Assembly (NCBI GenBank): GCA_028715015.1
Contig: JAQTLF010000002.1
Location: 23,851-60,665, forward strand
DNA from: Candidatus Moraniibacteriota bacterium
Lineage (GTDB): Bacteria > Patescibacteriota > Minisyncoccia > Moranbacterales > GWC2-37-73
Reading direction: 5' to 3'
DNA: 36,815 bases
Shown here: one piece after another, positions 3,382-17,057 of the stretch
How positions within the stretch are numbered: position 1 is the stretch's first letter
Layout of the letters: each line of letters starts with the position of its first letter
Position numbers and translations under genes: made by a program
Notes under the pieces: generated by a model
Told to the model about the DNA's origin: nothing
Databases searched by the model: none
What the model saw: the letters and a program-made list of their open reading frames with translations, nothing else

Positions 3382-3565
3382 AATTTTTTGTTGTTATAAT
3401 AATTTTTTTATTTTATCATTTGCCACAACTATAAGCAAAAATAGACCCACCGGCAGGCAGGAAACTTTAGATTGGACAAGTTTCAAGATTCATTTAAAAT
3501 GCCTATATGCCGACTATTGCCAAGTTAAAAAATATTTGCTAAACTGATTTTGTTGCTTGAAAGGG

Positions 3566-3585
3566 CAATATTTTCGAAAATATTG
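3566..3585. repeat. 20-bp perfect palindrome upstream of tRNA-Asn
   Basis: CAATATTTTCGAAAATATTG is a perfect 10+10 palindrome ending 7 bases before the tRNA gene. It overlaps the position where a -10 box would lie (TATTGA at 3581-3586, with TTGAAA 18 bases upstream at 3557-3562). It could be an operator or a recombinase binding site. No function is shown by the sequence alone. Confidence 0.5.
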
Positions 3586-3592
3586 AATATAT

Positions 3593-3664
3593 TCCGGCGT
3601 AGCGCAGCGGTAGCGCAGTTGACTGTTAATCAATTGGTCGTAGGTTCGAATCCTACCGCCGGAG
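3593..3664 (+). tRNA. trnN: tRNA-Asn (anticodon GTT)
   Basis: A full cloverleaf can be drawn. The acceptor stem TCCGGCG pairs with CGCCGGA, the D-stem is GCGC/GCGC, the anticodon loop CTGTTAA gives anticodon GTT, and the T-arm is GTAGG-TTCGAAT-CCTAC. The discriminator is G at 3664, followed by CAG, so a 3' CCA is not encoded. The serine recombinase gene ends 64 bases downstream, making this tRNA the apparent edge of the accessory block. Confidence 0.95.
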
Positions 3665-3675
3665 CAGAACTGGAG

Positions 3676-3706
3676 AACTAGAGTATAAAAGCTCTAGTTT
3701 TTCTTT
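3676..3706 (+). terminator. rho-independent terminator of tRNA-Asn
   Basis: AACTAGAG (3676-3683) pairs perfectly with CTCTAGTT (3692-3699) around an eight-base loop and runs into a T-rich tail. It sits 12 bases after the tRNA and faces the convergent recombinase gene. Confidence 0.75.
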
Positions 3707-3727
3707 ATCTTCGGGCAAATTCGTAGG

Positions 3728-5257
3728 TTAGAACCGCTTGAATATTGTCTTTATCTCAGAAGAGATTTTTTCAAGGCCTACTAACTTATTATTGGCTTCA
3801 ATATTGAGTTTTTTCTCAGAAAGTGAGAGGTTCGAACCAATCGCCTTGAATATCTCTTTTCGCTTTTCTTCGTCGCCATCCTTGAATTTTTCTAGTGCAT
3901 CTTGGGCGAATGCAAGCCATTCCTTGGCTTCTTCAAGTTGATCTATCCAGTTGGTTGAATTGCTCTCAGAAGCGTCCAAACTTGCTCTAAGGCGTGATTT
4001 TTCTTGGGATATGGTATCTTTCTTGGTAATGAACTCGCCCTCGCTTAGCTCGCCATTTATTCGCATATCTAGGAGTCTATCTAACTTTTTGTCACACGCT
4101 TCGAATTCCTTTTTGTGATCCTCGAGCGATTGTTTCTTTTCTTCAATTTCATCTCTGTTTTCTTCTCTCAATTTTTTAATTGCCCATTCCAAGAAAGTTG
4201 GATGAATCTTTATTTTATTGAGAACTATTATAATTTCTTCTTCAAACTTCTTTTCTTCGACCACTTTTTGATCACATTTTGGATCTAGTCGATGACTGCA
4301 ATGATAGTAGATGTAATAATGGGTGTTTCCATTCTGACATTTTTTAATTTTGTGTTCAGCCACAACTGATGCTCCGCATATTCCGCATCGTGTTGCTCCA
4401 GTATATTTGAAACTATATTTCCGTGGTCTGGTCGTGCCTCGTCTGCCCAATATTAATTGGGTTTTTTCAAATTCCGCTTGAGAGATCATTGGCTCATGCT
4501 TTCCTTTATGCCATTGTCCGCTATCAGATGGAAATTCATACCAGCCATAGTAGAAAGGGTTATTCATCATTGCATACCATGAGCTAATGGAAACTTTTTG
4601 ACCATGCTTGTTTGTAAATTTCCAATCGCTAGTTCCTTTTCTATATGCTTCCGGGGGAGTGAGCTTTCCTGAAGCTACCATCTTCAGCATTTTTTGAATC
4701 GTTTCAAATCTTTCAGGGTCTTTTTCAATTTCCTTTTCACCTTTTAGCTTGATGGGATTGTGTTTGTATCCTAGTGGCGATCCATTAGGATACCAACCTC
4801 GCTCTGCTTTGTTTCGTAGCCCTCGCTTTGTGTCAGTGCTTAAGTCTCGAATGAATTGATTTGCCATTCCTTGCTCTACAGCCATCACTAGAACATTATC
4901 TTCAGGGTAATAACTTCTTCCGAATGTAAAAATATGTTTTATCATCTTACCCTGTAGCATCCAACTTATCGTACCGCTATCTACAGGATTTCTAGACAGG
5001 CGATTAAGTTTCCAACAAAGTATTCCATCAGCTTCGCCCCGTTTTATTTTTTCAAACATTTCGTTAAAAACTATCCTCCCAGGCTCTTTGGCTGATTTGG
5101 ATTCATGCATAATTTCAGATATATTCAACCCGTTTTCTTCTGCGAGTCTTTTTAACTCTTCTATTTGTGAGTCGATTGATGCCATTTGTCGATCCTCACT
5201 TTCGGATGATTTTCTTGCATAGAGGATGTATTTATTTGCCTTTACTTCGTGGTTCAT
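3728..5257 (-). CDS. large serine recombinase (site-specific integrase)
   Basis: 509 residues. The N-terminal resolvase domain (about 8-150) carries YARKSS with the catalytic serine near residue 17, the IDSQIEEL block, and CWKLNRLSRNP. A recombinase domain follows (about 155-260, with GSPLGYKHNP and SSWYAMMNNPFYYGW). A zinc ribbon comes next with CGICGASV and a later cysteine in SHRLDPKC. The C-terminal coiled coil is charged (about 345-460). This is the layout of integrases that insert phages and integrative elements. It is the last gene of a minus-strand set that begins with the 46-aa protein at 6485, and it abuts tRNA-Asn. The start is an ATG; there is no clear Shine-Dalgarno motif. Confidence 0.93.
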   Translation of the reverse strand: MNHEVKANKYILYARKSSESEDRQMASIDSQIEELKRLAEENGLNISEIMHESKSAKEPGRIVFNEMFEKIKRGEADGILCWKLNRLSRNPVDSGTISWMLQGKMIKHIFTFGRSYYPEDNVLVMAVEQGMANQFIRDLSTDTKRGLRNKAERGWYPNGSPLGYKHNPIKLKGEKEIEKDPERFETIQKMLKMVASGKLTPPEAYRKGTSDWKFTNKHGQKVSISSWYAMMNNPFYYGWYEFPSDSGQWHKGKHEPMISQAEFEKTQLILGRRGTTRPRKYSFKYTGATRCGICGASVVAEHKIKKCQNGNTHYYIYYHCSHRLDPKCDQKVVEEKKFEEEIIIVLNKIKIHPTFLEWAIKKLREENRDEIEEKKQSLEDHKKEFEACDKKLDRLLDMRINGELSEGEFITKKDTISQEKSRLRASLDASESNSTNWIDQLEEAKEWLAFAQDALEKFKDGDEEKRKEIFKAIGSNLSLSEKKLNIEANNKLVGLEKISSEIKTIFKRF

Positions 5258-5333
5258 TGTTTTTATATTAATTGATTAGTTTCTTCAACAAACATCATAC
5301 TCTAAAACGTTACTAAAGCTAGTGGATAAAAAG

Positions 5334-5819
5334 CTACATTTCATACCAGTTAACATCCTCATTAGTGTTGCTTTTGCTGTGCTTCTTTTCTTCTTTTTCC
5401 TCTTCATCGTCATCAAACATGTCCATTATGAGGCTTGGCTTTTTAATTTCAAGTTCCTTTTTTTCTTTGAATCGTTCGGGTTCCATCCTTTCAAGCCACC
5501 ATGCTCCAGCCCTCCAATCTTTCAGCATTCCTACTTTTATGCTCTTGTGAGCGAGCTTGTGGGTTTCTAATTTCGCAGTCTCCAATCGTTCGCAAAACCC
5601 GCAAAACTTTTTCTTGTGTCGTATGATCGTATCCTCGCTAATTCCCACATAACTACAGGCTTTAGATTGGCTCATCCCATCTGAAAGAAGTCTTATGAGA
5701 GCTTCTTCTTTTTCCTTTGTTATTACATAAGGACGACCGATATTGTTGATAGATTTTTTTACTTTATTTTTCATACATATTTTTTGAGAGGAATAATTTT
5801 GAAAAAAATTGTTTGCCAT
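5334..5819 (-). CDS. homeodomain-like DNA-binding protein, terminase small subunit-like
   Basis: About 161 residues from the ATG at 5819; an ATG at 5774 giving 146 residues is equally possible, and the conserved part starts after both. GRPYVITKEKEEALIRLLSD plus MSQSKACSYVGISEDTIIRH form a helix-turn-helix of the kind seen in small terminase subunits and element-encoded regulators. The sequence ...DWRAGAWWLERMEPERF after it is a hallmark of these terminase-like proteins. The C-terminus is acidic (MFDDDEEEKEE). It lies between the recombinase and the winged-helix gene, and four ACAGAGA repeats sit directly upstream. DNA binding is well supported, while a packaging role is only suggested, since no large terminase is present here. 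Confidence 0.7.
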   Translation of the reverse strand: MANNFFQNYSSQKICMKNKVKKSINNIGRPYVITKEKEEALIRLLSDGMSQSKACSYVGISEDTIIRHKKKFCGFCERLETAKLETHKLAHKSIKVGMLKDWRAGAWWLERMEPERFKEKKELEIKKPSLIMDMFDDDEEEKEEKKHSKSNTNEDVNWYEM

Positions 5820-5832
5820 CTGCAAGATGAAA

Positions 5833-5877
5833 TCTCTGTTAGTATTCTCTGTATTAGTCTCTGTTGTTTATCTCTGT
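5833..5877. repeat. four iteron-like direct repeats TCTCTGT
   Basis: TCTCTGT occurs at 5833, 5846, 5858 and 5871, with spacings of 13, 12 and 13 bases. On the minus strand they read ACAGAGA and lie between the winged-helix replication-type gene (ends 5923) and the start of the homeodomain-like gene. The near-helical spacing suggests cooperative binding of one protein, as in plasmid iterons or operators. Confidence 0.7.
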
Positions 5878-5922
5878 AATATTGTGCAGGTTATGGTAAT
5901 TAGTTTTACCGAATCCTACATC

Positions 5923-6342
5923 TTACATGTCATAATCCGCATATGATTTTCCAAATCCATCATTTTGAGTGCGTACATATCCATCTATTTCTTTTTCATT
6001 GTGAGCAACTTCTTGTAACATTTGTACGAGCTTATCAGTGTTTAAATAGAAGCGTCTTTTCGGTGGTATACCCCTGGCTTTGACAGTTAATACATTTAAT
6101 TTTTCCCATTTTTTGATTGCAGTTTGCTGTTCTGATCTGGTCAAACAAGTTTCCTCCTTGAATTGCTCAATTGTTTTGTAAACATAATCCTTATTGTGAC
6201 CCTTGCCCCACCAGTAGAGTAATTGCGACATTAATAATCCAGCAGTTGCACTCCCTGCAATTCTGGCTAAGTCAGGATTAAATGCTATGGGTTTTGTGCC
6301 CAAGCTTTTTAGTAGTAGACTGTTAACATTTTCTTTGGCCAT
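5923..6342 (-). CDS. winged-helix replication-type protein
   Basis: 139 residues. The sequence FNPDLARIAGSATAGLLMSQ, then LLYWWGKGHNKDYVYKTIEQF, then LTRSEQQTAIKKWEKL and a Y-L-N strand near the end matches the winged-helix N-terminal domain found in phage replisome organisers and small plasmid Rep proteins. It binds DNA, probably in replication of the mobile element or its control. The gene starts three bases after the stop of the 46-aa gene and so is likely co-transcribed with it. The C-terminal tail is short and charged, so this is only the DNA-binding half of longer relatives. Confidence 0.7.
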   Translation of the reverse strand: MAKENVNSLLLKSLGTKPIAFNPDLARIAGSATAGLLMSQLLYWWGKGHNKDYVYKTIEQFKEETCLTRSEQQTAIKKWEKLNVLTVKARGIPPKRRFYLNTDKLVQMLQEVAHNEKEIDGYVRTQNDGFGKSYADYDM

Positions 6343-6344
6343 AA

Positions 6345-6485
6345 TTATTTTTTTGGTTTATAAACTGCAGTGAGTAGTCTTAGTAGTGTCTCACTGTATT
6401 CAATGGCTTCCTGATCAGAAATAACAACCCCAAATGTTTGGAGGTATAATTCTTTGAATTCTTTTAATTGATCTTGAGAAAGCAT
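6345..6485 (-). CDS. 46-residue conserved small protein of mobile elements
   Basis: This short frame translates as MLSQDQLKEFKELYLQTFGV then VISDQEAIEYSETLLRLLTA and VYKPKK. The pattern LS-QL-EFK-LY---FGV-IS--EA-E-A--LL-L---VY is one I recognise as a recurring small protein beside replication and recombinase genes of bacterial plasmids and elements. Its function is unknown. The stop lies three bases before the ATG of the winged-helix gene, which supports a real operon. The ATG has no strong ribosome-binding site, only CAAG before it. Confidence 0.75.
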   Translation of the reverse strand: MLSQDQLKEFKELYLQTFGVVISDQEAIEYSETLLRLLTAVYKPKK

Positions 6486-6514
6486 CTTGAATATTTCATA
6501 CTCAAAAATGACAA

Positions 6515-6539
6515 AAGCCAGCAGATAAACTGCTGGCTT
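6515..6539. other. 10-bp perfect stem-loop upstream of the 46-aa gene
   Basis: AAGCCAGCAG (6515-6524) pairs with CTGCTGGCTT (6530-6539) around a five-base loop. On the minus strand it lies about 30 bases upstream of the 46-aa gene's ATG, in its probable leader. No T-run follows on either strand, so simple termination is unlikely. Ten of its bases can pair instead with 6579-6588. Confidence 0.6.
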
Positions 6540-6561
6540 GTATGAAAATTGGCAAATAAAA

Positions 6562-6614
6562 AAACCAAAACAACAAACAGCAGTTTATTTAACTGACATT
6601 CATTGTTTTGGTTT
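6562..6614. repeat. 12-bp inverted repeat enclosing a small hairpin
   Basis: AAACCAAAACAA (6562-6573) is perfectly complementary to TTGTTTTGGTTT (6603-6614). Inside, CAGTT (6581-6585) pairs with AACTG (6591-6595). It may form a stem with an inner hairpin, as RNA or single-stranded DNA. No gene lies between 6486 and 6970 apart from these structures and the putative RNA at 6792. Confidence 0.6.
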
Positions 6615-6735
6615 CATTCCCTAAGTGGTAAGAATCCAAATCCTTCCCAATGACCTTCCGAGTCATAACTACAACACAACCTTTTGAGTATGTGACGCAG
6701 TTGAGTTTTTAAATTACATCTTTATTATAAATAAT

Positions 6736-6747
6736 TAGTTCGAACTA
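6736..6747. promoter_or_regulatory. 12-bp palindrome TAGTTCGAACTA, possible operator
   Basis: A perfect palindrome lies 10 bases upstream of the -35 box of the putative RNA promoter. It has the size and position of a regulator binding site. The binding protein is unknown. Confidence 0.4.
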
Positions 6748-6756
6748 GTCAAATGG

Positions 6757-6785
6757 TTGTATTTAAAGCAATTTGATGGTATTTT
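6757..6785 (+). promoter_or_regulatory. sigma70-type promoter for the structured RNA
   Basis: TTGTAT (6757-6762), a 17-base spacer and TATTTT (6780-6785) make a fair sigma70 promoter. The expected start near 6792 coincides with the first base of the long closing helix of the structured region, which is what an independent RNA gene would show. Confidence 0.5.
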
Positions 6786-6791
6786 ATATGT

Positions 6792-6967
6792 GATACCACA
6801 AGTTAATAAATACTGAGGCAAAACCCTGGGTTTTTTGTCCTATCACGCCCTTTAGCGGGCGGCTCGATGCACATGATAGGACACCTCGGTGTTTCTTGAC
6901 TTGTGGTATCCGTCGGGTCGTCCACTCAAGCGGAACCACTCGGCGACTTAATTATTAAGTCGTTTTT
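6792..6967 (+). ncRNA. putative structured non-coding or leader RNA, about 176 nt
   Basis: Nested helices are all perfect or nearly so. P1 is GATACCACAAGT (6792-6803) with ACTTGTGGTATC (6899-6910). P2 is ACTGAGG (6812-6818) with CCTCGGT (6884-6890), one wobble. P3 is TGTCCTATCA (6836-6845) with TGATAGGACA (6874-6883). P4 is CGCCC (6846-6850) with GGGCG (6857-6861). AAAACCC and GGGTTTT (6820-6834) form a further small palindrome. P3 and P4 are contiguous on the 5' side, and P3 abuts P2 on the 3' side. After P1 comes a 33-base segment with CCACTC twice, then terminator hairpin CGACTTAAT/ATTAAGTCG (6944-6962) and five Ts. I match it to no known RNA family. The ATG of a 2-TM protein lies three bases after the T-run, so it could be a cis-acting leader instead. 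A single-strand replication origin or transfer site is another option. Confidence 0.65.
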
Positions 6968-6970
6968 ATT

Positions 6971-7291
6971 ATGGAAAATCATCCAACAAAAACACAGCCT
7001 CAAGATGGCTCACATCTTGAAAATAAATGGTGGTTTAGAGTTGCTAAGGTGGTATATGTTTTTTTATACCTATTTTTTGCAATAGGAGTTATCGCTTCAG
7101 GAATAGATAATTTCTTCACCTACGAAGTTAGTACTGGATCAGTTATCTATACTCCAGTATTTGCCTTCGCCAATGTTTTAATAGTTGTCATTATTGGATT
7201 TGTTGTAATCAAAGCAATAAAAATAATATTCTTTTATACATCCATTGCTCAGAGGCCAAATTGGAAAAAAGAATTGACCAACATATTTTAA
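6971..7291 (+). CDS. small two-helix membrane protein behind the structured RNA
   Basis: 106 residues: a hydrophilic N-terminus (1-25), helix one (about 26-46, YVFLYLFFAIGVIASGI), a short outside segment, helix two (about 61-84, VFAFANVLIVVIIGFVVIKAI) and a basic C-terminus. No family is recognised. The ATG at 6971 follows the terminator T-run with only three bases between and no ribosome-binding site, so expression would need readthrough or leaderless initiation. A short spacer separates it from the methyltransferase gene on the same strand. Options include an RNA-controlled membrane effector or an unrelated cargo gene. Confidence 0.6.
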   Translation: MENHPTKTQPQDGSHLENKWWFRVAKVVYVFLYLFFAIGVIASGIDNFFTYEVSTGSVIYTPVFAFANVLIVVIIGFVVIKAIKIIFFYTSIAQRPNWKKELTNIF

Positions 7292-7344
7292 TCTGGCTCT
7301 TGTAACACTTAGAAAATTCTTCATTACTTACAATAAGACCTACT

Positions 7345-7376
7345 AGTTTACACAATTTACAGAAATATGCTATCCT
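7345..7376 (+). promoter_or_regulatory. probable promoter of the methyltransferase gene
   Basis: TTTACA near 7345 and TATCCT near 7371, about 18 bases apart, end only six bases before the methyltransferase ATG. The transcript would be nearly leaderless, which fits the lack of a Shine-Dalgarno motif. Confidence 0.4.
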
Positions 7377-7382
7377 ATAAAT

Positions 7383-9371
7383 ATGAACGATGCATATTTT
7401 GGAAATAAAAAGATTTGTATAACGCAAAGACGTTATCTTGGCTCTAAAACTAAGCTACTATCATTTATAGATAGTATACTTGAAGGTGAGAATATAGAGT
7501 TTAATTCTTTCGCTGATATTTTTGCTGGAACTGGCACTGTTGCCAATCATTTTTATAATCGCTCTAAAATTATAGTGAATGATATTTTAGATTCAAATTC
7601 TCATGTCTACACAGCGTTTTTTGGTAAGGACATAATCAGGGAACAAAAACTGAAAGAACGACTAAAACATTATAATGACATTGAAATCAAAGAATATGAT
7701 GAAAATTATTTTTCAAAAAACTTTTCAAACACCTATTTTGACGCAGAAAATGCTAAAAAAATAGGAATCATTAGGGATGATATTGAAAAATTATTTGAAG
7801 AAAAAATAATTACCAATAGAGAAAAATCTTATTTACTAACATCTCTGATTTACGCACTTGATAGAATTGCCAATACAGTTGGCCATTATGATGCATACAG
7901 AAAAATCGACATTCCAACTAAAAAACTATTTTTACTGCCTCTTGATATAGCAAACTCTCGCTACTCTGCCGAAATCTACAAAGATGACGCTAATGAGCTG
8001 GTAAAAAAAATAAAAGCAGATGTTGTCTATATTGACCCACCATATAATTCTAGGCAATATTCAGATTCTTATCACTTATTAGAAAATATCGCTACTTGGA
8101 AAAAGGAAACAGTTTTTGGTGTTGCCAAAAAAATTGATCGCTCGCACATCAAAAGCGAGTACAACATGAAATCTGCAGGTGTTGCCTTTGGCGACTTAAT
8201 AGACAATATTAATGCGAAATATATCCTTGTTTCCTATAATGATATGGGGACTTCGGGTAATGCTCGCTCACAATCACGTATCAGTGACCATGAGATTTTG
8301 TCGTCGTTAAAACGGCGAGGCGAGGTAAAAGTCTTTGAGACAAACTTCAAACAATTCACTACTGGAAAATCGAGCAAGGATGATCTAAAAGAACGCATAT
8401 TTCTGTGTAAGGTAGACATTGTCTCAAGAAACAATAAGGCGATAATTGCCTCAAAAAACAATCCTGTTCAAGCTGGCTTTGTAAAATCACCCCTTAACTA
8501 CACTGGTGGAAAACATAAACTTTTACCCCAAATAACAAAGTTATTTCCAGTTGATATAAAAACTTTTTATGATGTATTTTCTGGCGGTGCGAATGTCGGA
8601 ATTAACGCTACGGCTAAAAATATAATCTGTATTGAAAAAAATCGTTATGTAGTAAATCTGTTGAAGTTAATACAAAATGATAATTTTGAAGATTTGAATC
8701 AAAAAGTGATCGACATTATAGATGAATTTGGTTTAAGCCAGAGTTACATAAAAGGCTACGACCATTATAATGTGGATAGTTCGTCAGGTCTTGGTCAACA
8801 CAATAAAGACGCTTTTCTAAAACTTCGCAGTGAGTTTAATAAAGAAAAAACAAGAATTGATTTATTGTTGGTGCTTGTTTTGTATTCTTTCAATAACCAA
8901 ATTAGATTCAATTCAAATGGCGATTTTAATTTACCAGTTGGAAAACGGGATTATAATGGTAGCTCAAGGAGAAATGTTGCGGCTTTCAGCCAAGTATCAA
9001 ATGAGAAAAAAATAGCATTTAAAAGTTGTGATTTTCGTGATGTTGAAAAAATGTCATTAATGAAAGATGATTTTGTGTATTTAGATCCACCATATTTACT
9101 GGGTCTTGCTAGTTATAATGAAAAGGGAGGCTGGACAGAAAAAGACGAGAAGGATCTATATTTACTCTTAACCAGACTGGATAAGAAAGGAATTAGGTTT
9201 GCTTTATCAAATGTCTTAGAGCATAAAGGCAAAACCAATGCAATAATGAAAAACTGGGCAAAAAAGCATAGTTATAAGGTTCATAAACTAAACTATGACT
9301 ACAAAAATTCAAATTATCACTCCACTGCAAAAAATAATAAAACCATAGAGGTTCTTATTACAAATTACTAA
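7383..9371 (+). CDS. fused double D12-class adenine-N6 DNA methyltransferase
   Basis: 662 residues made of two complete D12-class (Dam-like) methyltransferases in tandem. Domain one has YLGSKTKLL (motif X), FADIFAGTGTVA (about 43-54, SAM binding) and DPPY at 218-221. Domain two has NYTGGKHKLL, FYDVFSGGANVG (about 395-406) and DPPY at 568-571. Each half methylates adenine. A tandem pair is the known solution for an asymmetric Type IIS site whose strands differ (M.FokI is the classic example). The AlwI-type nuclease starts 21 bases downstream. The ATG is preceded by an AT-rich leader with no ribosome-binding site. Confidence 0.93.
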   Translation: MNDAYFGNKKICITQRRYLGSKTKLLSFIDSILEGENIEFNSFADIFAGTGTVANHFYNRSKIIVNDILDSNSHVYTAFFGKDIIREQKLKERLKHYNDIEIKEYDENYFSKNFSNTYFDAENAKKIGIIRDDIEKLFEEKIITNREKSYLLTSLIYALDRIANTVGHYDAYRKIDIPTKKLFLLPLDIANSRYSAEIYKDDANELVKKIKADVVYIDPPYNSRQYSDSYHLLENIATWKKETVFGVAKKIDRSHIKSEYNMKSAGVAFGDLIDNINAKYILVSYNDMGTSGNARSQSRISDHEILSSLKRRGEVKVFETNFKQFTTGKSSKDDLKERIFLCKVDIVSRNNKAIIASKNNPVQAGFVKSPLNYTGGKHKLLPQITKLFPVDIKTFYDVFSGGANVGINATAKNIICIEKNRYVVNLLKLIQNDNFEDLNQKVIDIIDEFGLSQSYIKGYDHYNVDSSSGLGQHNKDAFLKLRSEFNKEKTRIDLLLVLVLYSFNNQIRFNSNGDFNLPVGKRDYNGSSRRNVAAFSQVSNEKKIAFKSCDFRDVEKMSLMKDDFVYLDPPYLLGLASYNEKGGWTEKDEKDLYLLLTRLDKKGIRFALSNVLEHKGKTNAIMKNWAKKHSYKVHKLNYDYKNSNYHSTAKNNKTIEVLITNY

Positions 9372-9392
9372 TTTTTGTGGCATAATGAAATT

Positions 9393-11204
9393 ATGTTAAA
9401 AGCATGGTCAATTACAACAACTGTTAGAAACCCAGAACGTCTGCGTGATTTTTTGGTCGCCTTAAAACCCCTTGAAAATAAGACCTGGGACGATGCTAAC
9501 CAGGAAAATTATCAAAAACTTTTGATTAAAAACCGTTTGTATGGTTTCGGTAATACGCAATTTTATAATGGACTAACCTCGGATATTGTAAAATTGATAA
9601 ATGATACCGATAGAGAGATTGATGACAACACAATAGATGAGATCATAAAGTTAAAGAACTATACGGAATTTGCAATGCGTGGTCGTCAATCAATAAACCC
9701 TCTTACAAAATTTGGTTTTGTAGTTATAGATAATGGTGCAGTTAAAATAACCGAGCTCGGAAAGAAACTTATAGCTAGCGAAAAAGATGCTGGTGATGTA
9801 TTTCTAAAATCGTTTATAAAATGGCAGATACCAAACCCAGCTAGTAATGATTTTCCCGATGAAGGTAATTACGATGTTGTGCCTTTTGTTGCAACTCTTA
9901 AGTTAATAAGCGAAGTTAATAGAATTGAAACTGAGAAAGGAAATAATGCAGTTGGAATTAGTAAGCGAGAGTTTTCGCTATTTGCTCCGTCATTAGTTAA
10001 ATACGTAGATATTGAAAATTACGCAGAGCAAATTGTTAAGTTACGAGCCTTACAAAAAGGAAAAACAAAACAAGAACGAAAAGAAATTCGAGATAATTAT
10101 CGCAAACAATTTTCAACAAACTTTTTGGGTACAAGTAATCAAGTCGCAATCAATAAGTTACTCAAAAACCTGAAAGATTATGGAGATAATGCAATTAGAT
10201 ATTTCCGTCTGACAAAGTTTATTCGTATTCGTGGTAATGGTTTTTATATTGATTTGGAGCCAAATCGCCACACTGAGACGGAGGCGTTATTTGAAAGCGA
10301 ATTCTATAAGTCAAAACATTTTGCCGATAAAGATGAGTATGTTGCTTATATGTCTAATGATAGTTTACCTGTATTGCCTTGGCAAACAAAAGATAAGTTA
10401 TCTAAAATCGCTAGTAATGTTTATAACGACGTAATTGAATTGCAGAATAATCTTGGTTTGACGGCCGAAAGCAAAAAAGACATATCTGAAATGTCTGAAA
10501 ATGATTTAACATCATACATTAAGAATTTACGAGAAATACGCAAAGAAGTACAAGAAAAAGACAATCACATCAAAGCTCAACCAGTCTCATCAATTACTCA
10601 ATATATTGAGCAATTAGAAAACATTTTTGATCTTGAAAATCGTGCTTTAATGCTTGAATATCTTTCAACAATGGGGCTTCATGCTTTAAATGATGCAAAA
10701 GAAATTAAGCCAAATTATCCAGTCGGCGATGATAACGAACCGACGTCAACTGCTCCTGGTGGTATGGCTGATATTGAGTGTTTTTACAATAACTTTAATA
10801 TGATCTGTGAAGTTACAATGCTGAATGGTCGCGATCAATGGTTTAATGAGGGACAACCAGTTATGAGACATCTGCGTGATTTTGAAAATTCACACGACAA
10901 TGCTTACTGTATTTTCATTGCACCAACGATTCATACCGATAGTGCCGAAACTTTCCATATCGCCAACACAGTTGGCTATAAAGGCAGTAAACAGAAAATT
11001 GCACCGCTTACGATAAAGCAATTTGTTGAATTGCTAAAAACACTTAAACAAATGCGTGAGGCGAACAAAAAGTTTACACATGATAATTTGAAAATTTTAA
11101 TTAACGATATTGCTGATAGTGCCAATAGTATTAGTAACTCCGATGACTGGGTTGCAAATACACAAAATATCGTTAATTCTTGGGCTGTTAGTTTAGTAAA
11201 TTAG
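9393..11204 (+). CDS. AlwI-family Type IIS restriction endonuclease
   Basis: 603 residues from the ATG at 9393; the frame is open a little further upstream but only from a TTG. The start LKAWSITTTVRNPERLRDFL is the typical N-terminus of the AlwI family (AlwI, PleI, MlyI, nicking BstNBI), which cut a few bases outside GGATC or GAGTC. The catalytic PD-(D/E)XK core is visible late in the protein as GGMADIECF with D460, then CEVTML with E473 and T475 in the lysine position, as known for this family. The target of this copy cannot be read from sequence. It forms an RM operon with the fused methyltransferase and ends at a strong terminator. Confidence 0.92.
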   Translation: MLKAWSITTTVRNPERLRDFLVALKPLENKTWDDANQENYQKLLIKNRLYGFGNTQFYNGLTSDIVKLINDTDREIDDNTIDEIIKLKNYTEFAMRGRQSINPLTKFGFVVIDNGAVKITELGKKLIASEKDAGDVFLKSFIKWQIPNPASNDFPDEGNYDVVPFVATLKLISEVNRIETEKGNNAVGISKREFSLFAPSLVKYVDIENYAEQIVKLRALQKGKTKQERKEIRDNYRKQFSTNFLGTSNQVAINKLLKNLKDYGDNAIRYFRLTKFIRIRGNGFYIDLEPNRHTETEALFESEFYKSKHFADKDEYVAYMSNDSLPVLPWQTKDKLSKIASNVYNDVIELQNNLGLTAESKKDISEMSENDLTSYIKNLREIRKEVQEKDNHIKAQPVSSITQYIEQLENIFDLENRALMLEYLSTMGLHALNDAKEIKPNYPVGDDNEPTSTAPGGMADIECFYNNFNMICEVTMLNGRDQWFNEGQPVMRHLRDFENSHDNAYCIFIAPTIHTDSAETFHIANTVGYKGSKQKIAPLTIKQFVELLKTLKQMREANKKFTHDNLKILINDIADSANSISNSDDWVANTQNIVNSWAVSLVN

Positions 11205-11230
11205 TAACCCCCCCCATGTCTTTTATGGAT

Positions 11231-11258
11231 AAAATGGCTCTTGTTTGAGCCATTTTTT
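11231..11258 (+). terminator. rho-independent terminator of the RM operon
   Basis: AAAATGGCTC (11231-11240) and GAGCCATTTT (11247-11256) form a 10-bp stem with a six-base loop ending in Ts. A run of eight Cs (11208-11215) lies between the nuclease stop and this hairpin. Confidence 0.9.
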
Positions 11259-11278
11259 GTATGCAAGCATTTTTGGTG

Positions 11279-11307
11279 TTGACAAAATAATTAAACGTTG
11301 ATAATAT
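11279..11307 (+). promoter_or_regulatory. consensus sigma70 promoter of the XRE-protease operon
   Basis: TTGACA (11279-11284), exactly 17 bases, TAATAT (11302-11307). This is the strongest promoter seen in the window. It places transcription start near 11313 and so rules out an earlier translation start for the XRE gene. Confidence 0.85.
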
Positions 11308-11336
11308 TAAGAAACAGTAATAATAAAAACAACTTT

Positions 11337-11663
11337 ATGCAAAATGACTTTGGTAAAAAAATAAAGGAATTACGAGAAAGCCATTTTCCAGGCATAAGTC
11401 TTAGAAATGTTGGCGAGCAGATACGTCCCAAAAGTAATTATTTTACATATCTTAGTAGGGTTGAAGCGGGAGTTATTAAGCCATCTAGAAAATTTTTATC
11501 TCAAATAAAGGATGAGTATCAACTAGATGACGATGAGTACAAGTCCTTGGTGTTGATCTACACTGCAACAGAAATAATGGATGGGTGGGCTGAATTTGAT
11601 GATACTGAAAAGAAAGATATGGTGGCACAACTTTTTAGGAAAATAAAGAAAGATAACAAATAA
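11337..11663 (+). CDS. XRE-family helix-turn-helix regulator
   Basis: 108 residues from the ATG at 11337. The segment DFGKKIKELRESHFPGISLR followed by NVGEQIRPKSNYFTYLSRVE and AGVIKPSR is an XRE/Cro-type helix-turn-helix (about residues 4-60). The rest is acidic and helical. It is followed four bases later by an ImmA/IrrE-type protease gene. In ICEBs1 and several phages such a pair holds the element silent until the protease removes the repressor, and some toxin-antitoxin loci share the layout. It probably represses its own consensus promoter. Confidence 0.85.
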   Translation: MQNDFGKKIKELRESHFPGISLRNVGEQIRPKSNYFTYLSRVEAGVIKPSRKFLSQIKDEYQLDDDEYKSLVLIYTATEIMDGWAEFDDTEKKDMVAQLFRKIKKDNK

Positions 11664-11667
11664 TAAT

Positions 11668-12354
11668 ATGCCACGATTACGTCTGCATAAAAATTGGAAT
11701 CCGCTCGAGGAAATTTATGATCTCACTAAAAAAGAGATTGAATTTCAAGTTATGCAAGATCTACAAAAGTATAATCAATATTTTCTTCAAAGATACGGCA
11801 GGTCAGTATCGGACGATTTTGATGTAGATAATTTTGTGGCAGAAAACTGGGGCTTTGAAATTGTTTTTGATTCATTGGATCAAACAGAAGGAGAAGAGAT
11901 TTTAGGATGTCTTAAACCAAGAGATAAAAAAATTATAGTAGATGCGGATCAGTGTAAAACACAAGCAAGAATAAATTTCACGATTGCACACGAGGCGGGT
12001 CATTTATCACTGCATGCTTCAATGATGCGTTTGGAAAATGGCAAAGTAGTTGATTGGAGAGATAAGCCAATCCAGCCACAATTTGCTAATCCAGAAAAAG
12101 AAAAAACTTTAGATGCTAATCAGCAAAAAATGGAACGTCAAGCCAATAGATATGCAGGTATTCTTCTCGCACCAACCCACAAAGTTTTCAGTGTGTTGGC
12201 ACAGATGAAGATCATAAATGATAATCAACAAACTGAATCACTGGATTTATCTAAACACGCTCAATTTTTAATGGATAAATTTGGTATGTCTAGACAAGCG
12301 TTGGAAATTAGATTGTCAGATTTAAAAGTTAGCGTTTTGAATAAAAAATACTGA
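11668..12354 (+). CDS. ImmA/IrrE-family metallopeptidase
   Basis: 228 residues. FTIAHEAGHLSLH (around residue 110) is the HExxH zinc site of the ImmA/IrrE (DUF955) family, and ERQANRYAGILLAP supplies the downstream glutamate region. The C-terminal part AQFLMDKFGMSRQALEIRL is the usual helix-turn-helix-like end. Relatives cleave XRE repressors after DNA damage or other signals. It starts four bases after the XRE stop, so the two are translated as a unit. Confidence 0.9.
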   Translation: MPRLRLHKNWNPLEEIYDLTKKEIEFQVMQDLQKYNQYFLQRYGRSVSDDFDVDNFVAENWGFEIVFDSLDQTEGEEILGCLKPRDKKIIVDADQCKTQARINFTIAHEAGHLSLHASMMRLENGKVVDWRDKPIQPQFANPEKEKTLDANQQKMERQANRYAGILLAPTHKVFSVLAQMKIINDNQQTESLDLSKHAQFLMDKFGMSRQALEIRLSDLKVSVLNKKY

Positions 12355-12550
12355 TTGAGTAAAAAGAAAAACCATCTTTTGAAGATGATTTCTCTGGGTA
12401 CTTAATCTGTGATTTAGCAAAGAAGATCTTTTATTGCAAATACTTTAACGAGGAGTTTTGCAACAAATTTTGGTCGATTTCTTTAGCTGATTCTTATGTA
12501 ATCTCAGTTTAGCAGGTCAAGTCCATTTAATCAACCCTAAACATAATTCT
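12355..12550. other. intergenic region with weak hairpin
   Basis: No open frame of interest was seen in this stretch. An imperfect stem ACCATCTT-ttg-AAGATGAT lies just after the protease gene and is followed by TTTCT, a weak terminator candidate. The rest is AT-rich leader of the 40-aa gene, without a promoter I can support. Confidence 0.4.
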
Positions 12551-12673
12551 ATGCCAAAGACAAAGACAGTTGTAAAAATTGGGAGAAGTGCTAAAAACGG
12601 CCGTTTTATGACAGTCGCAAAAGCAAAAAAGGATCCCAAGCACACAACAGTAGAAACGATTAAGAAGAAATAA
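12551..12673 (+). CDS. 40-residue basic small protein
   Basis: This short frame reads MPKTKTVVKIGRSAKNGRFM then TVAKAKKDPKHTTVETIKKK. The core KIGRSAKNGRFMTVAKAKKDP-HTTVETIKK resembles a recurring family of very small basic proteins (pattern VGRSAKTGRFV---A--P-TTVTET) that I have seen as uncharacterised neighbours in bacterial genomes. It is followed within nine bases by a strong terminator, which supports a separate transcribed gene. The charge suggests nucleic-acid binding. The function is unknown. Confidence 0.75.
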   Translation: MPKTKTVVKIGRSAKNGRFMTVAKAKKDPKHTTVETIKKK

Positions 12674-12681
12674 TACATTGG

Positions 12682-12710
12682 GGCGGCTGATTTGCAATAG
12701 GCCGCCTTTT
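12682..12710 (+). terminator. rho-independent terminator after the 40-aa gene
   Basis: GGCGGC (12682-12687) pairs with GCCGCC (12701-12706), followed by TTTT. It separates the 40-aa gene from the nuclease operon and argues against any start of the next gene before 12710. Confidence 0.85.
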
Positions 12711-12731
12711 AATTATAAAAATAGGACATGT

Positions 12732-13982
12732 ATGTTTTACAGAACAAAACCGCAGATATCATCGTATTATCAAAAGACACTCGAAAATATAAAAGAGAAA
12801 ATTCTTAGAGAATCAGACAATTTTATAATTGGGACAGATACCAAGGAACTGTCAGAGTTTTATTTGCAAGACCTTCCTCATCATATTCAGTTTGATGATG
12901 AGCGAGGAGAAGAACTTGAACACAAGAAGGAGTTGCGTCGGATAGAAGCACATAAAAGAGAGGAATTTTATCGCAATGAGGGGGCTATTAATTTTGAATA
13001 TGAGAGTGTGATAATCAGTATGTATTTTTTGCCCAATGATAATGTTCAAATGATTAGCGAATATATTCCATCTACCAGATCAATGAGTTGGACGCCAGAG
13101 GAAGTTAATTGGTATCGTGACCATGTTTCTTTTGGTATCGATATTAAAGGTTATGGTATAAATTTGGATGAAAACGGGATAAAAAATGCTATACAGTGGC
13201 AAAAAGACAGAATTTCAGAACGAATAAATAGCGTGAATGGTGATATTACTCAAGGTAACGAAATGCTTAAAACACAAATACCTAAATTTATTGAGGAAAG
13301 GAAGAGGAAGCTCTCAGAGGATAAAGATAAAATAGATGCTCTTATTAAAACGATAAATATTCCACTTAAAAAGAAAGAATCAGAGGCCGTGAAAAGAGTT
13401 CAATTGGACACGAAGCCATTGATAAAAAAGATTCGTCCAAATCCATCTTTGCCGGAAGTATATGAACTAGACAGAGAAAAAGTTGTTGATATTATTTCAA
13501 TAATAGACAATCAAGGAAGACAATTTGAAAAAACTCCAGACACATACAAAACTATTGGAGAAGAAGGATTAAGGAATGTACTACTTGTTAGTCTCAATAC
13601 GGTTTTTGAGGGAAAGGCTACTGGCGAAACATTTTCCAATAAAGGAAAAACCGATATTTATCTTTGTATAGACAAGGGAAATATCTTAGTTTGTGAATGT
13701 AAAATTTGGGGAGGAAAGGAATTATACAATGAAACAATCGATCAATTGCTTGGGTATCTCACATGGCGTCAGAACTATGGAATCATAATAACATTTGTTA
13801 AGCAAGTTAATTTTTCAAAAGTTATAGAACAAATTCCTGACATTGTAAAATCTCACAGTTCATATACGAGGGGTTATCTTCAAAAAGACACTACACACTT
13901 CATTTCTCACCACAAATTAAATGGGGATGATATTAAAGATGTCGAGATTCATCATCTCTTTTATAATCTTTACTTCGAATAA
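12732..13982 (+). CDS. PD-(D/E)XK nuclease-domain protein, putative defence nuclease
   Basis: 416 residues from the ATG at 12732, which has AGGA five bases upstream. The frame is open earlier, but only from a TTG inside the preceding terminator. The N-terminal half is helical and charged (about 30-230), with a coiled-coil-like stretch at 155-215. The C-terminal half holds a restriction-like core: EEGLRN with a glutamate near 277, then KGKTDIYL with D308, then VCECKIW with E322 and K324, then IDQLLGYLTWR. I recognise this block, including GKATGETF--KGKTDI, from a widespread uncharacterised nuclease family. The next gene follows after 25 bases on the same strand, so the two are probably one operon. 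A defence role is inference from context. Confidence 0.8.
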   Translation: MFYRTKPQISSYYQKTLENIKEKILRESDNFIIGTDTKELSEFYLQDLPHHIQFDDERGEELEHKKELRRIEAHKREEFYRNEGAINFEYESVIISMYFLPNDNVQMISEYIPSTRSMSWTPEEVNWYRDHVSFGIDIKGYGINLDENGIKNAIQWQKDRISERINSVNGDITQGNEMLKTQIPKFIEERKRKLSEDKDKIDALIKTINIPLKKKESEAVKRVQLDTKPLIKKIRPNPSLPEVYELDREKVVDIISIIDNQGRQFEKTPDTYKTIGEEGLRNVLLVSLNTVFEGKATGETFSNKGKTDIYLCIDKGNILVCECKIWGGKELYNETIDQLLGYLTWRQNYGIIITFVKQVNFSKVIEQIPDIVKSHSSYTRGYLQKDTTHFISHHKLNGDDIKDVEIHHLFYNLYFE

Positions 13983-14007
13983 AGCCATAATTAAATTGCA
14001 AAATAAC

Positions 14008-15369
14008 ATGTCTTTAATAAGAAAAAACCAACCAGAAATAACACGACCTGAGTTTTTTATTGAGGTGTGCATGAAAGGTTCAGCAGACCTTAGAAAAATT
14101 TTGAAAATTGATGAAAGTCAATACAATTTTATTCATCATAGAGGAGTCACTAAATCTCAAAGCTATTTTCTCTATAGTGCTATGAATGAAGTTGAAAAAG
14201 CAGGTATATCAATTATGCAGGCCGAGGAGTTTATTGGTAATGATGGAAAAGAGATTGATGAAAACGATCGTCTCACTAAGAACATTATCCAATCGATACA
14301 GGATGAGCAGTTTTTAAAAATCAGGAAAATGACTGAGTTATTAACGGAGCTTGTACTTTTTTCGAAAATAAATACGGATGTCTATTACAGACACTATATG
14401 TTGATTAAAGAGCTGAAGTCGTTAAAGGACACAATAAAAAATGCTAAGAATGCCTATGGTTGCCACATTCAAAATTATCAGAAGCAATTGGAAGATATAA
14501 TGCAAGAAATAAGTAGCCTCGAAACATCTCCTGTAGATATTAGTAAGTGTTGGTATTTAGCAAATGGAAAAAAGGGGCGTGTAACTGGCATTAAAGGTGT
14601 GCTCAGCTCATTCGAAGAAAGAATTAATACTGCTTTTGGGATTGCTAATCCAAATCAAATAATCGCACTTGGAACTTCATTTGAGGAGGGCTATGGTAAT
14701 TTTAGCAATGCTGTTCATTTCAATGCTGTTGTTGGTGCACATGTTTCGAATGTGTCATTACAGGGAATTAGGGCTAACATGAGTGGAATGGGAATACTTG
14801 CCGCAAATATAATTATTCAAGCCCGTATTTTATTTGGAGATCGTAGAAGAAGTGGCTATGCATCTTTTCTTTCTAAGATATTTAGAAATAGCAATCAGGC
14901 AGAAGTTGCATTAAATAAACATACTAAACCAAATATTCAAAAAGGTGACTTTGTTAATGCTCAAGGTGAATTAGCTGAGGTACTTAAAATAATGAAAGGA
15001 AAATATGGTTTTAGATCTTTTCGTGTCCGATTTTTATTAAAAGAAGATACGGAGGTTGCTGGAAAGGGAGATAGGAAAACAGTATGGACACATAAAAATC
15101 CAGAATTCGAAGAATATCCCGCAATGTGGGTAAGAAAGCTTTATAGTCGGAAAGAAATTTTAGATTCCATAAAGAAGGAAATTTTAAAACATGATTCTAA
15201 TGCGAACATAAGAACTCAAAAATTAGTTCCCTTTATAAGAAAGTCAGTTATTCATATGTGGGAAAATGTTGGCCTCAAGGAAAGCGTGCATGGCAAAAAA
15301 GAACAGGCCTTGGAAAAGGTTGAACAAGAAAGAGAAAGAATTAGAAGGAGCATTAATTCTGTTTCATAA
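14008..15369 (+). CDS. uncharacterised 453-residue partner of the nuclease
   Basis: 453 residues from the ATG at 14008; the open frame extends upstream into the nuclease gene. I do not recognise a family. Residues about 1-180 are helical and charged with coiled-coil character. The centre (about 195-290) has SFEERINTAFGIANP and FEEGYGNFSNAVHFNAVVGA, loosely like the histidine-containing helix of DUF5677-type proteins. A small beta domain follows (about 311-365; KGDFVNAQGELAEVLKI, YGFRSFRVRFLL), possibly SH3-like. The C-terminus is a basic helix. No membrane segment is seen. IS30 lies just behind the stop, which looks intact. Confidence 0.75.
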   Translation: MSLIRKNQPEITRPEFFIEVCMKGSADLRKILKIDESQYNFIHHRGVTKSQSYFLYSAMNEVEKAGISIMQAEEFIGNDGKEIDENDRLTKNIIQSIQDEQFLKIRKMTELLTELVLFSKINTDVYYRHYMLIKELKSLKDTIKNAKNAYGCHIQNYQKQLEDIMQEISSLETSPVDISKCWYLANGKKGRVTGIKGVLSSFEERINTAFGIANPNQIIALGTSFEEGYGNFSNAVHFNAVVGAHVSNVSLQGIRANMSGMGILAANIIIQARILFGDRRRSGYASFLSKIFRNSNQAEVALNKHTKPNIQKGDFVNAQGELAEVLKIMKGKYGFRSFRVRFLLKEDTEVAGKGDRKTVWTHKNPEFEEYPAMWVRKLYSRKEILDSIKKEILKHDSNANIRTQKLVPFIRKSVIHMWENVGLKESVHGKKEQALEKVEQERERIRRSINSVS

Positions 15370-15379
15370 GTTTAATTTT

Positions 15380-16440
15380 GTGAGGTTCGCATTAGTTCTA
15401 ACTCGCGGCTACATTCTAGCCTGAACTGCAATTTTGCCCTCTACAAATACCTCATAGGGAGTTAAATAGCCAAGTCTTTTTCGTGGGCAGTTGTTGATTA
15501 AATCTGCAGCCGCATCCACGATTTCTTGAGTAAGTATAGCAAACATACTTTTCTTAGGGAAGAACTGTCTAAGCAGTCCATTGGTATTTTCATTGGTACC
15601 TCGTTCCCAGCTATGGTATGGGTAAGCAAAATATATTTTCATATCCGTTTCTCTCTCGATGATTTCATGTTCTGAAAATTCTGTTCCGTTATCATAGGTA
15701 ATCGTATGTTTTTTGTCTTCAGAAATATTTTTAAATCTTTCAACTGCTTTTTCTTTTACAGAAGAAGCAGTTTTTCTTTTTAAAAGATCTGCCAAAAGAA
15801 ATCCGCTCTTTCTTTCTACATGGGTTAGGATTCCTGTAGTTTTTTCTCCACCTACAATCGTGTCACCCTCCCAATCTCCAATTCTTTCTCGCTTGTCTAC
15901 AATTTCCCCGCGCGTGTCTATACGCTTCTTTTTGGCTTCCTCACGTGCTTTCTCCCTATCTTTGGTTCCATGTCGTCTTCTGTATTTTCCTTTCTTCTGT
16001 CTTAAAAATTTTCTCCATTCTTTTTTCTCCTCATAAATGAATTGGTAGATTGTTTCATGGCAAATGATTAATCCAAAATCTTTTCGAAGCCTACCTGCAA
16101 TCTGTTCTGGTGACCAAAATTCTTTAGTTAACTTTTCTTCAACATAATTACAAATCTCTTCATCAACAAAAAGTTTCTTGGTTTTTCTTTTTGCAATCCT
16201 CCTTCTTCTCATAGCCAAGGAATGTGCTTTTTGAGGTTCATATTCACCCTTGTTGTTTCTGGTTAATTCTCTGCTAATTGTTGATGGATCAACTTCTAAC
16301 TGCAGTGCGATATCTTTCCGTATTAGCCCTGCTTTAAGGAGGGCTGCTAGGCTAATTCTTTTGCCTAGTGTAAGCTGGTTATGGGACATCTTGTTTTAAG
16401 TTAATGTTTAGTTGCTCGACACAACTATTTTAACTCAAAA
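15380..16440. mobile_element. IS30-family insertion sequence (approximate limits)
   Basis: The limits are approximate. Flanks of the transposase show no clean terminal repeat by eye; the nearest candidates are around 15385-15405 and 16415-16440, with only a few matching bases. The element lies between the 453-aa gene and the 112-aa gene and disrupts neither visibly. Confidence 0.5.
15409..16389 (-). CDS. IS30-family transposase
   Basis: 326 residues, the full IS30 length. An N-terminal helix-turn-helix (QLTLGKRISLAALLKAG, then IALQLEVDPSTISRELTRN) is followed by the rve/DDE core: GDWEGDTIVG with D176, TYDNGTEF with D233, and NENTNGLLRQFFPK with E267. CPRKRLGYLTPYEVF closes the domain. It appears intact and potentially active. 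Confidence 0.95.
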   Translation of the reverse strand: MSHNQLTLGKRISLAALLKAGLIRKDIALQLEVDPSTISRELTRNNKGEYEPQKAHSLAMRRRRIAKRKTKKLFVDEEICNYVEEKLTKEFWSPEQIAGRLRKDFGLIICHETIYQFIYEEKKEWRKFLRQKKGKYRRRHGTKDREKAREEAKKKRIDTRGEIVDKRERIGDWEGDTIVGGEKTTGILTHVERKSGFLLADLLKRKTASSVKEKAVERFKNISEDKKHTITYDNGTEFSEHEIIERETDMKIYFAYPYHSWERGTNENTNGLLRQFFPKKSMFAILTQEIVDAAADLINNCPRKRLGYLTPYEVFVEGKIAVQARM

Positions 16441-16501
16441 ACGAGGTGTTCTTTTGTTTTAAGGGAAATTGCAATTCAGATTAGAATTTGACGCGGAGCA
16501 C

Positions 16502-16530
16502 TTGACAGATAGCACTTAATGTGCTATTTT
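16502..16530 (+). promoter_or_regulatory. promoter with a hairpin between -35 and -10
   Basis: TTGACA (16502-16507), a 17-base spacer and TATTTT (16525-16530). Inside the spacer, ATAGCAC (16509-16515) pairs with GTGCTAT (16521-16527), which overlaps the -10 box. The dyad may be an operator. The same bases also look like a small terminator, since five Ts follow, so either reading is possible. Confidence 0.5.
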
Positions 16531-16576
16531 TGTTTGTTGTTTGAAATACATCAAAAACACGGAGGATAAGACCACC

Positions 16577-16915
16577 ATGAGAAATCCACAAATTGGGGAA
16601 CGGACTGAACGAGGACAGCGCGTTGTTGTTGGCACAAGTGGTTATGGAGTTAGCGAAGGTACGGCCACGCAAATTACATTGCCAAGTGGTAAATTCATGT
16701 ATGTCGGTGTAAGTTCTTTGATAGAAAATTCTGCCAAGAAAAGAGGGTTGGAATGCAAAGTCGTGAGATATTTTGGCGCATGCATCTATGCCAATATTAA
16801 CGACAGAGCATATGACAAATTTCCAATTCAGATCGATGAGGTAAATGTGGCAGAATTTATAGACAAAATTGCCACAAAAGAAGAGTGTGATCAGTTCCAT
16901 TCGCAATTGCGATAA
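16577..16915 (+). CDS. uncharacterised 112-residue protein
   Basis: 112 residues from the ATG at 16577, chosen because GGAGG lies 11 bases upstream, one of the few good ribosome-binding sites in the window. The N-terminal half is small-residue rich with beta character (RGQRVVVGTSGYGVSEG, ITLPSGKFMYVGVSS). The C-terminal half is mixed helix/strand. No motif is recognised. It has its own promoter and a strong terminator, so it is a single-gene unit between the IS30 element and the rpoD gene. It may be the last gene of the accessory block or a backbone gene. Confidence 0.65.
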   Translation: MRNPQIGERTERGQRVVVGTSGYGVSEGTATQITLPSGKFMYVGVSSLIENSAKKRGLECKVVRYFGACIYANINDRAYDKFPIQIDEVNVAEFIDKIATKEECDQFHSQLR

Positions 16916-16918
16916 TAG

Positions 16919-16972
16919 CCCACCAGTAGAAAACAGAAATCCATCTGTGCTGCTAGGTGGGTTTTTGTTTTT
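16919..16972 (+). terminator. rho-independent terminator of the 112-aa gene
   Basis: CCCACC (16919-16924) pairs with GGTGGG (16956-16961), with inner pairs AGTAG/CTGCT and ACAGA/TCTGT, then TTTTTGTTTTT. Confidence 0.9.
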
Positions 16973-17030
16973 ATAGAAATGCTGTTCTAACTTAATCGAT
17001 GAGCAGGAGCCATGAAGTTTATAACAAATA

Positions 17031-17053
17031 AAAAGCACTGCGTGTGCTTTTTT
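17031..17053. terminator. bidirectional hairpin with A and T tracts
   Basis: AAAAGCAC, five bases, GTGCTTTTTTT. A-run and T-run on opposite sides allow termination on either strand between the 112-aa gene and rpoD. Confidence 0.7.
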
Positions 17054-17057
17054 TGAT

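What the first reader, a model, noticed from the sequence alone, without database searches (positions are those of the whole stretch)
6757..6967. Putative new structured RNA with own promoter and terminator, three bases before a 2-TM protein gene
The region holds a perfect 12-bp closing helix (6792-6803 with 6899-6910), a 7-bp helix, a perfect 10-bp helix contiguous with a 5-bp hairpin, an added AAAACCC/GGGTTTT palindrome, a 3' segment with CCACTC twice, and a T-tailed hairpin. The predicted start site coincides with the first base of the closing helix. The layout resembles a compact ncRNA or a riboswitch-like leader whose terminator ends at the ATG of a small membrane protein. I recognise no known family.
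Basis: partly seen in the sequence, partly recalled or inferred. Interest (0 to 1): 0.78.

Follow-up and report, generated by a model that had tools for sequence, protein, structure and literature searches.

The report
Pseudoknot leader RNA of CPR elements
This is a real, previously uncatalogued folded RNA that sits directly in front of genes of mobile DNA elements in ultra-small Patescibacteria (often in front of the gene for the DNA-inserting recombinase), and its conserved long-range pairing suggests it is an RNA switch that holds those genes off.

Summary
Window 6792-6967 is a promoter-driven RNA (z = -9.2) with homologues in at least 24 other loci across Patescibacteria, and none of it matches Rfam. 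P1, P2 and P4 are supported by many compensatory changes. It is a 13-bp (11-13 bp across the family) long-range pseudoknot, P6, between the P4 loop (6857-6869) and the segment just 3' of P1 (6911-6923). P6 is present in all 25 members aligned, although the search model did not contain it. G-U pairs far outnumber A-C mismatches, so the structure is RNA on the + strand, not a DNA palindrome. In Candidatus Moranbacteria the RNA lies between the large-serine-recombinase module and a variable cargo. The ATG of an unrelated protein starts 0-10 nt after the T tract in 14 of 15 loci. In seven loci from other lineages, and in a second copy in one Moranbacteria element, it lies directly upstream of the serine recombinase gene itself. 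Best explanation: a cis-acting attenuator or riboswitch-like leader in which pseudoknot formation favours termination. Family, structure and leader position are shown; the switching mechanism and signal are inferred.

The parts
6724..6752 (-). Divergent promoter of the leftward module (TTGACT-17-TATAAT), back to back with the RNA's promoter
   Evidence: Consensus scan, 11 of 12 matches
6757..6785 (+). Promoter of the RNA: TTGTAT, 17-nt spacer, TATTTT
   Evidence: Aligned upstream regions of 14 homologues show TTGnnn or TTTACT, an exact 17-nt spacer, and TAnnTT in 13 of 14
6792..6805 (+). P1, 5' strand (pairs with 6897-6910)
   Evidence: 10 of 14 pairs with changes on both sides, 97% paired in 14 sequences; 13 of 14 in 25 sequences
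6808..6817 (+). P2, 5' strand (pairs with 6885-6894)
   Evidence: 8 of 10 pairs covary
6820..6833 (+). P3, variable small hairpin AAAACCC/GGGTTTT at the three-way junction (different sequence elsewhere, absent in several members)
   Evidence: Sequence and homologue folds
6836..6845 (+). P4, 5' strand (pairs with 6874-6883)
   Evidence: 8 of 10 pairs covary, 98.6% paired
6847..6860 (+). P4 tip hairpin GCCC-UUUAGC-GGGC; mutually exclusive with P6
   Evidence: 88.6% paired; overlaps the P6 strand
6857..6869 (+). P6 (pseudoknot), 5' strand GGGCGGCTCGATG in the P4 loop; may extend 5' to 6850 (CUUUAG with CUCAAG 6925-6930)
   Evidence: 97.8% paired, covariation reached by 0 of 500 shuffles on an alignment whose model lacked P6; 25 of 25 members; extension
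6897..6910 (+). P1, 3' strand
6911..6923 (+). P6 (pseudoknot), 3' strand CGTCGGGTCGTCC, immediately 3' of P1
6911..6945 (+). P5, local alternative hairpin CGTCGGG/CTCGGCG (6911-6917 with 6939-6945), excludes P6 and takes two bases of the terminator stem
   Evidence: 96.9% paired, 2 of 7 pairs with changes on both sides; energies
6944..6967 (+). Intrinsic terminator-like hairpin CGACTTAA-TTA-TTAAGTCG plus T5
   Evidence: Terminator scan (2 found against 0.2 expected in shuffles); near-invariant in 14 homologues
6971..7291 (+). 106-aa two-TM protein whose ATG begins 3 nt after the T tract (first cargo gene)
   Evidence: start-codon spacing across loci; no Pfam match
7383..11204 (+). Cargo: two-domain D12 DNA methyltransferase (7383-9371) and AlwI-type restriction endonuclease (9375-11204)
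   Evidence: Pfam and PADLOC
3728..5257 (-). Large serine recombinase of the element
   Evidence: Pfam Resolvase, Recombinase, Zn_ribbon_recom
3593..3665 (+). tRNA-Asn at the element boundary; homology to sister genomes ends at its 3' end (3666)

Best explanation
A new family of cis-acting leader RNAs carried by large-serine-recombinase integrative elements of Patescibacteria. Shown by sequence: own conserved promoter; P1, P2 and P4 around a three-way junction; an 11-13-bp pseudoknot P6 between the P4 loop and the strand immediately 3' of P1; then either a short T tract (recombinase-type leaders) or an added hairpin terminator (Moranbacteria cargo-type leaders); then the start codon of the controlled gene. 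Inferred: P6 is the switching helix. When it forms, transcription stops: P6 next to the T tract itself resembles a terminator stem, and in the window's type P6 holds the strand that would otherwise form P5 and compete for the base of the terminator. When a signal (metabolite, element protein or antisense RNA) keeps the P4 loop from pairing, polymerase reads through and the recombinase or cargo gene is made. The signal is unknown. The switch may act on translation as well, because the start codon abuts the hairpin.
For: Fold z = -9.2. Homologues found by CM in 15 of 131 genomes of the order and in other orders and classes. Covariation for P1/P2/P4/P5/terminator: 33 of 52 pairs in 14 sequences; for P1/P2/P4 28 of 31 in 25, 0 of 500 shuffles. 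P6 covariation: 0 of 500 shuffles with 97.8% paired, and 31 double-change cells against 7.8 expected in 25 members found with a model lacking P6. One member (L036) has matching one-base deletions on both strands. Own duplexes average -21.2 kcal/mol against -14.5 for mismatched partners. G-U far exceeds A-C. Promoter spacing is constant at 17. ATG lies 0-10 nt after the T tract in 14 of 15 loci against a 3.7% base rate. Eight RNAs, seven in other lineages plus a second copy in L029, directly precede a serine recombinase ATG, with a TTT to TTTTT tract after P6.
Against: No transcript, termination or reporter data exist. A classic antiterminator (6915-6922 with the terminator 5' arm) is complementary but shows no covariation, and P5 overlaps the terminator stem by only about two bases, so P5 and the terminator can largely coexist. 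The T tracts after P6 in recombinase-type leaders are short (3-5 T). Two members (L081, L082) do not lead a gene but face convergent ones, and L037 lacks a recombinase nearby. Start-codon spacing may partly be inherited with the leader rather than selected anew at each locus.
Confidence: 0.55

Rival explanations
1. Stand-alone trans-acting small RNA of the elements. P6 or the hairpin is its 3' end, and downstream genes are close only because the elements are compact.
For: Own promoter and terminator; L081 and L082 end in TGTCCCTTTTTT and face convergent genes whose ends lie within about 11 nt of the RNA's 3' end; L057 ends P6-TTTTTG with the next ATG about 40 nt on.
Against: ATG abuts the T tract in 14 of 15 loci, and all eight recombinase-linked copies sit just before the recombinase ATG, several with a Shine-Dalgarno-like AGGA or GGAG between. 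Downstream genes then have no room for a separate promoter.
Confidence: 0.2
2. Translational switch: P6 forms upstream of the ribosome-binding site and activates or blocks initiation, controlled by a competing antisense RNA, as in the repZ leader of plasmid ColIb-P9.
For: P6 3' strand lies roughly 15-30 nt before the recombinase ATG, with an SD between in several members. [quoted passage not shown]
Against: No antisense promoter inside the RNA was found in the window. The Moranbacteria type has a terminator hairpin between P6 and the ATG and no SD there.
Confidence: 0.18
3. The RNA is a cofactor or guide of the serine recombinase, comparable to the bridge RNA of IS110 elements.
For: Tight link to serine recombinase elements that use many different tRNA genes.
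Against: Longest match between RNA and the integration end is within the shuffled range in all 8 loci tested (the longest, 10 nt in L059, is low-complexity and reached by 7% of shuffles). Large serine recombinases are known to work as proteins alone (own knowledge). In Moranbacteria the RNA is usually far from the recombinase.
Confidence: 0.03
4. DNA-level feature (recombination, nick or origin hairpin) rather than RNA.
For: Long inverted repeats on a mobile element.
Against: G-U kept and A-C avoided on one strand: 80 against 14 in P1-P5 and terminator, 68 against 6 in P6. The promoter and terminator have the matching polarity.
Confidence: 0.02

Closest known systems
Transcription-attenuating riboswitches and leader attenuators
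   Same: 5' leader with own promoter, junction-type fold with a pseudoknot, mutually exclusive 3' helices, intrinsic terminator just before the gene
   Different: No ligand known; the controlled genes are a recombinase or variable mobile-element cargo, not a pathway; no Rfam match
repZ leader pseudoknot of IncI plasmid ColIb-P9
   Same: Loop of a stem-loop pairs with a strand upstream of the start region of a mobile-element gene
   Different: Much longer pseudoknot (11-13 bp), three-way-junction fold, integrase or cargo gene instead of replication initiator, no antisense RNA seen
Bridge RNA of IS110-family elements
   Same: Structured RNA linked to a site-specific recombinase gene
   Different: Large serine recombinase, not a DEDD recombinase; no excess matches between RNA and integration site
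Structured RNA families of Rfam 15
   Same: Size and complexity are typical of catalogued leader RNAs
   Different: No member matches any of the 4227 families

Membership tests
Any Rfam 15 family | Covariance-model score above gathering threshold | tested here: not met
   No match for the window region or any homologous RNA
Riboswitch | Conserved structured domain in the 5' leader of the regulated gene | tested here: met
Riboswitch | Expression platform with mutually exclusive helices | tested here: inconclusive
   P6 excludes P4 tip and P5, but P5 and the terminator largely coexist and the antiterminator lacks covariation
Riboswitch | Direct binding of a small-molecule ligand | not testable with these tools
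   Needs in-line probing or SHAPE with ligands
Intrinsic terminator | Stem followed by T tract | tested here: met
   6942-6967 in the window; near-invariant in homologues
repZ-type antisense-controlled pseudoknot leader | Pseudoknot strand just upstream of the start region | tested here: met
   Recombinase-type members
repZ-type antisense-controlled pseudoknot leader | Antisense RNA against the loop | tested here: inconclusive
   No antisense promoter-like site inside the RNA in the window scan; no transcript data
IS110 bridge RNA | DEDD recombinase | tested here: not met
   Resolvase/Recombinase/Zn-ribbon serine recombinases
IS110 bridge RNA | Loops complementary to target and donor DNA | tested here: not met
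   (ungapped matches only)

The most novel reading that the evidence does not exclude
A phylum-wide RNA switch of Patescibacteria mobile elements in which a long-range pseudoknot is itself the stem of an intrinsic terminator: pseudoknot formation stops transcription into the integrase gene, so element excision and integration are gated by an RNA fold. Moranbacteria elements have re-used the same domain to gate swappable cargo genes.
Probability: 0.3. Interest if true: 0.85.

Novelty: new variant of a known kind. Interest (0 to 1): 0.72.

Why it matters
To my knowledge almost nothing is known about RNA-based gene control in Patescibacteria (CPR) or about how the large serine recombinases of their mobile elements are kept silent. 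This gives a defined RNA family, with a structure supported by covariation, sitting exactly at that control point, and a clear experiment: break and restore P6 and measure readthrough into the integrase. It also gives a handle (a covariance model) for finding these elements.

Tried and rejected
Weak CM matches in G028 (L042) and G377 (L045) and pattern matches L050 (Gammaproteobacteria MAG), L054 (Acidobacteria MAG) and L056 (inside a large phage ORF in IMG/VR) were rejected as chance after CM scoring and reading. Pairing of the P1 3' strand (TTGAGTG) with the CACTCAAG segment looked attractive but has little covariation above control; the same segment pairs better with the P4 loop as a P6 extension. 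A formal antiterminator helix has no covariation. The tip hairpin and P5, which dominate the MFE fold, are better read as alternatives to P6. RNA-guided recombination was tested by matching RNA to integration ends, with no signal. No copies by BLAST in phages or plasmids, nor by pattern in IMG/VR. The target of the leader is not a fixed 2-TM protein. Literature searches found no report of this RNA.

Full report
WHAT IS THERE. The window is part of a 1.06-Mb genome; public records of homologous loci include Candidatus Moranbacteria and other Patescibacteria MAGs. The + strand of 6780-6970 folds to -82.1 kcal/mol against -45.4 +/- 4.0 for 200 dinucleotide shuffles, z = -9.2. No Rfam 15 family matches, even at permissive thresholds.

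HOMOLOGUES. BLAST in the family found four further copies in three genomes. A covariance model from five sequences (R1) found the RNA in 15 of 131 genomes of the order, one of them a weak match later rejected. A second model (R2) again gave 15, dropping that one and adding G103. The distribution is patchy and some genomes have two copies, as expected of mobile DNA. A third model restricted to the P1-P2-P4 domain (R3) found it in other orders and classes of the phylum. It was not found in phage or plasmid records or by pattern in IMG/VR, at the sensitivity of those searches.

STRUCTURE. On 14 sequences, 95.4% of cells in 52 pairs are standard pairs and 33 pairs change on both sides; 0 of 500 shuffles and no slid register come near. 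On 25 sequences, 28 of 31 pairs change on both sides. G-U pairs outnumber A-C mismatches 80 to 14, so selection acts on RNA of the + strand.

THE PSEUDOKNOT. A scan for further complementary, covarying column blocks revealed a 13-bp helix, P6, between the 3' half of the P4 loop (6857-6869) and the strand immediately 3' of P1 (6911-6923). It is 97.8% paired and its covariation exceeds all 500 shuffles, although the alignment had been fitted to a structure without it. L036 has the same one-base deletion on both strands and L039 and L028 have compensatory changes. In the distant members, also found without P6 in the model, the sequence of both strands changes yet pairing stays: L078 GGGCAGCATGG/CCATGCTGTCC, L029 second copy GGGGCAGTGTG/CACACTGTCCC, L077 GGGGCGGTCTG/CAGACCGTCCC. 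Own duplexes average -21.2 kcal/mol against -14.5 for partners swapped between members. Counts on 25 sequences: 31 double-change cells against 7.8 expected. The strand columns were in R3 as primary sequence, which favours conserved sequence but cannot create compensatory changes. In the Moranbacteria type P6 may extend by CUUUAG/CUCAAG. P6 excludes the P4 tip hairpin and the local hairpin P5 that dominate the MFE fold.

CONTEXT. Upstream lies a promoter with a fixed 17-nt spacer, kept in the homologues, back to back with a divergent promoter. In Moranbacteria the leftward module contains a large serine recombinase in 11 of the 14 main loci (cluster; Pfam for the window), and also in the divergent member L057/L060. 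The rightward genes differ from locus to locus: here a two-TM protein, a D12 methyltransferase and an AlwI-type endonuclease. In 14 of 15 loci an ATG of an open frame of at least 63 aa begins 0-10 nt after the T tract; the base rate is 3.7%. This is strong evidence for a leader, though spacing may partly be inherited with the RNA. In seven loci from other lineages (L074-L080) and in a second copy in one Moranbacteria element (L029 281-402), the RNA directly precedes the ATG of a large serine recombinase, with P6 followed by 3-5 T and, in several members, AGGA or GGAG. Tested members are confirmed serine recombinases by Pfam. These recombinase genes run into, or close to, different tRNA genes. 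In the window, homology to sister genomes ends at the 3' end of tRNA-Asn, which lies next to rpoD in those sisters.

MECHANISM. Shown: a conserved RNA with own promoter, a pseudoknot, a terminator-like 3' end and a gene starting right after it. Inferred: P6 formation favours termination. In recombinase-type members and L057, P6 is itself a GC-rich helix followed by T residues. In the window's type P6 removes the strand that otherwise forms P5, which takes about two base pairs from the foot of the terminator; with that strand masked the terminator stem is longer in the predicted folds. A textbook antiterminator is complementary but does not covary, so this step is weak. A translational switch like repZ of ColIb-P9 (PMC8383071) remains open. 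A guide function for the recombinase has no support. The ligand or signal is unknown.

NOVELTY. The kind (structured leader or attenuator) is known; this family, its pseudoknot architecture and its link to serine recombinase elements were not found in Rfam or in the literature searched. Subscription papers and preprints were not searchable.

Noticed in passing
L023:1707-1955(-) (same place as L041, genome G080): A group I intron (RF00028, 76.8 bits) lies immediately upstream of a tRNA-Asn-like 3' end, directly next to a truncated copy of the RNA; it looks like a tRNA-Asn gene interrupted by a group I intron.
   Followed up: partly
window 3533-17104: Sister genomes have rpoD about 65 bp from tRNA-Asn; here the element lies between them and the tRNA is inverted relative to rpoD, suggesting insertion plus inversion.
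   Followed up: partly
L085, L086, L090 (recombinase 3' ends): The 3' end of the serine recombinase gene overlaps the tRNA gene on the opposite strand (tRNA-Arg, tRNA-Asn, tRNA-Lys), i.e. a family of tRNA-targeting serine recombinases with many specificities.
   Followed up: partly
L083 and L084: Two divergent members of the RNA (L081, L082) end about 11 nt from, or just inside, the 3' ends of convergent genes: a DpnI-like restriction gene and a reverse transcriptase-like gene (names from reading the sequence); these members do not lead a gene.
   Followed up: no
L029:281-402(-) and 4134-4339(+): One element carries two copies of the RNA, one before its recombinase and one before its cargo, with different pseudoknot sequences.
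   Followed up: partly
window 15409-16389 (-): Integrase-core (rve) transposase-like gene with HTH near the right side of the element.
   Followed up: no
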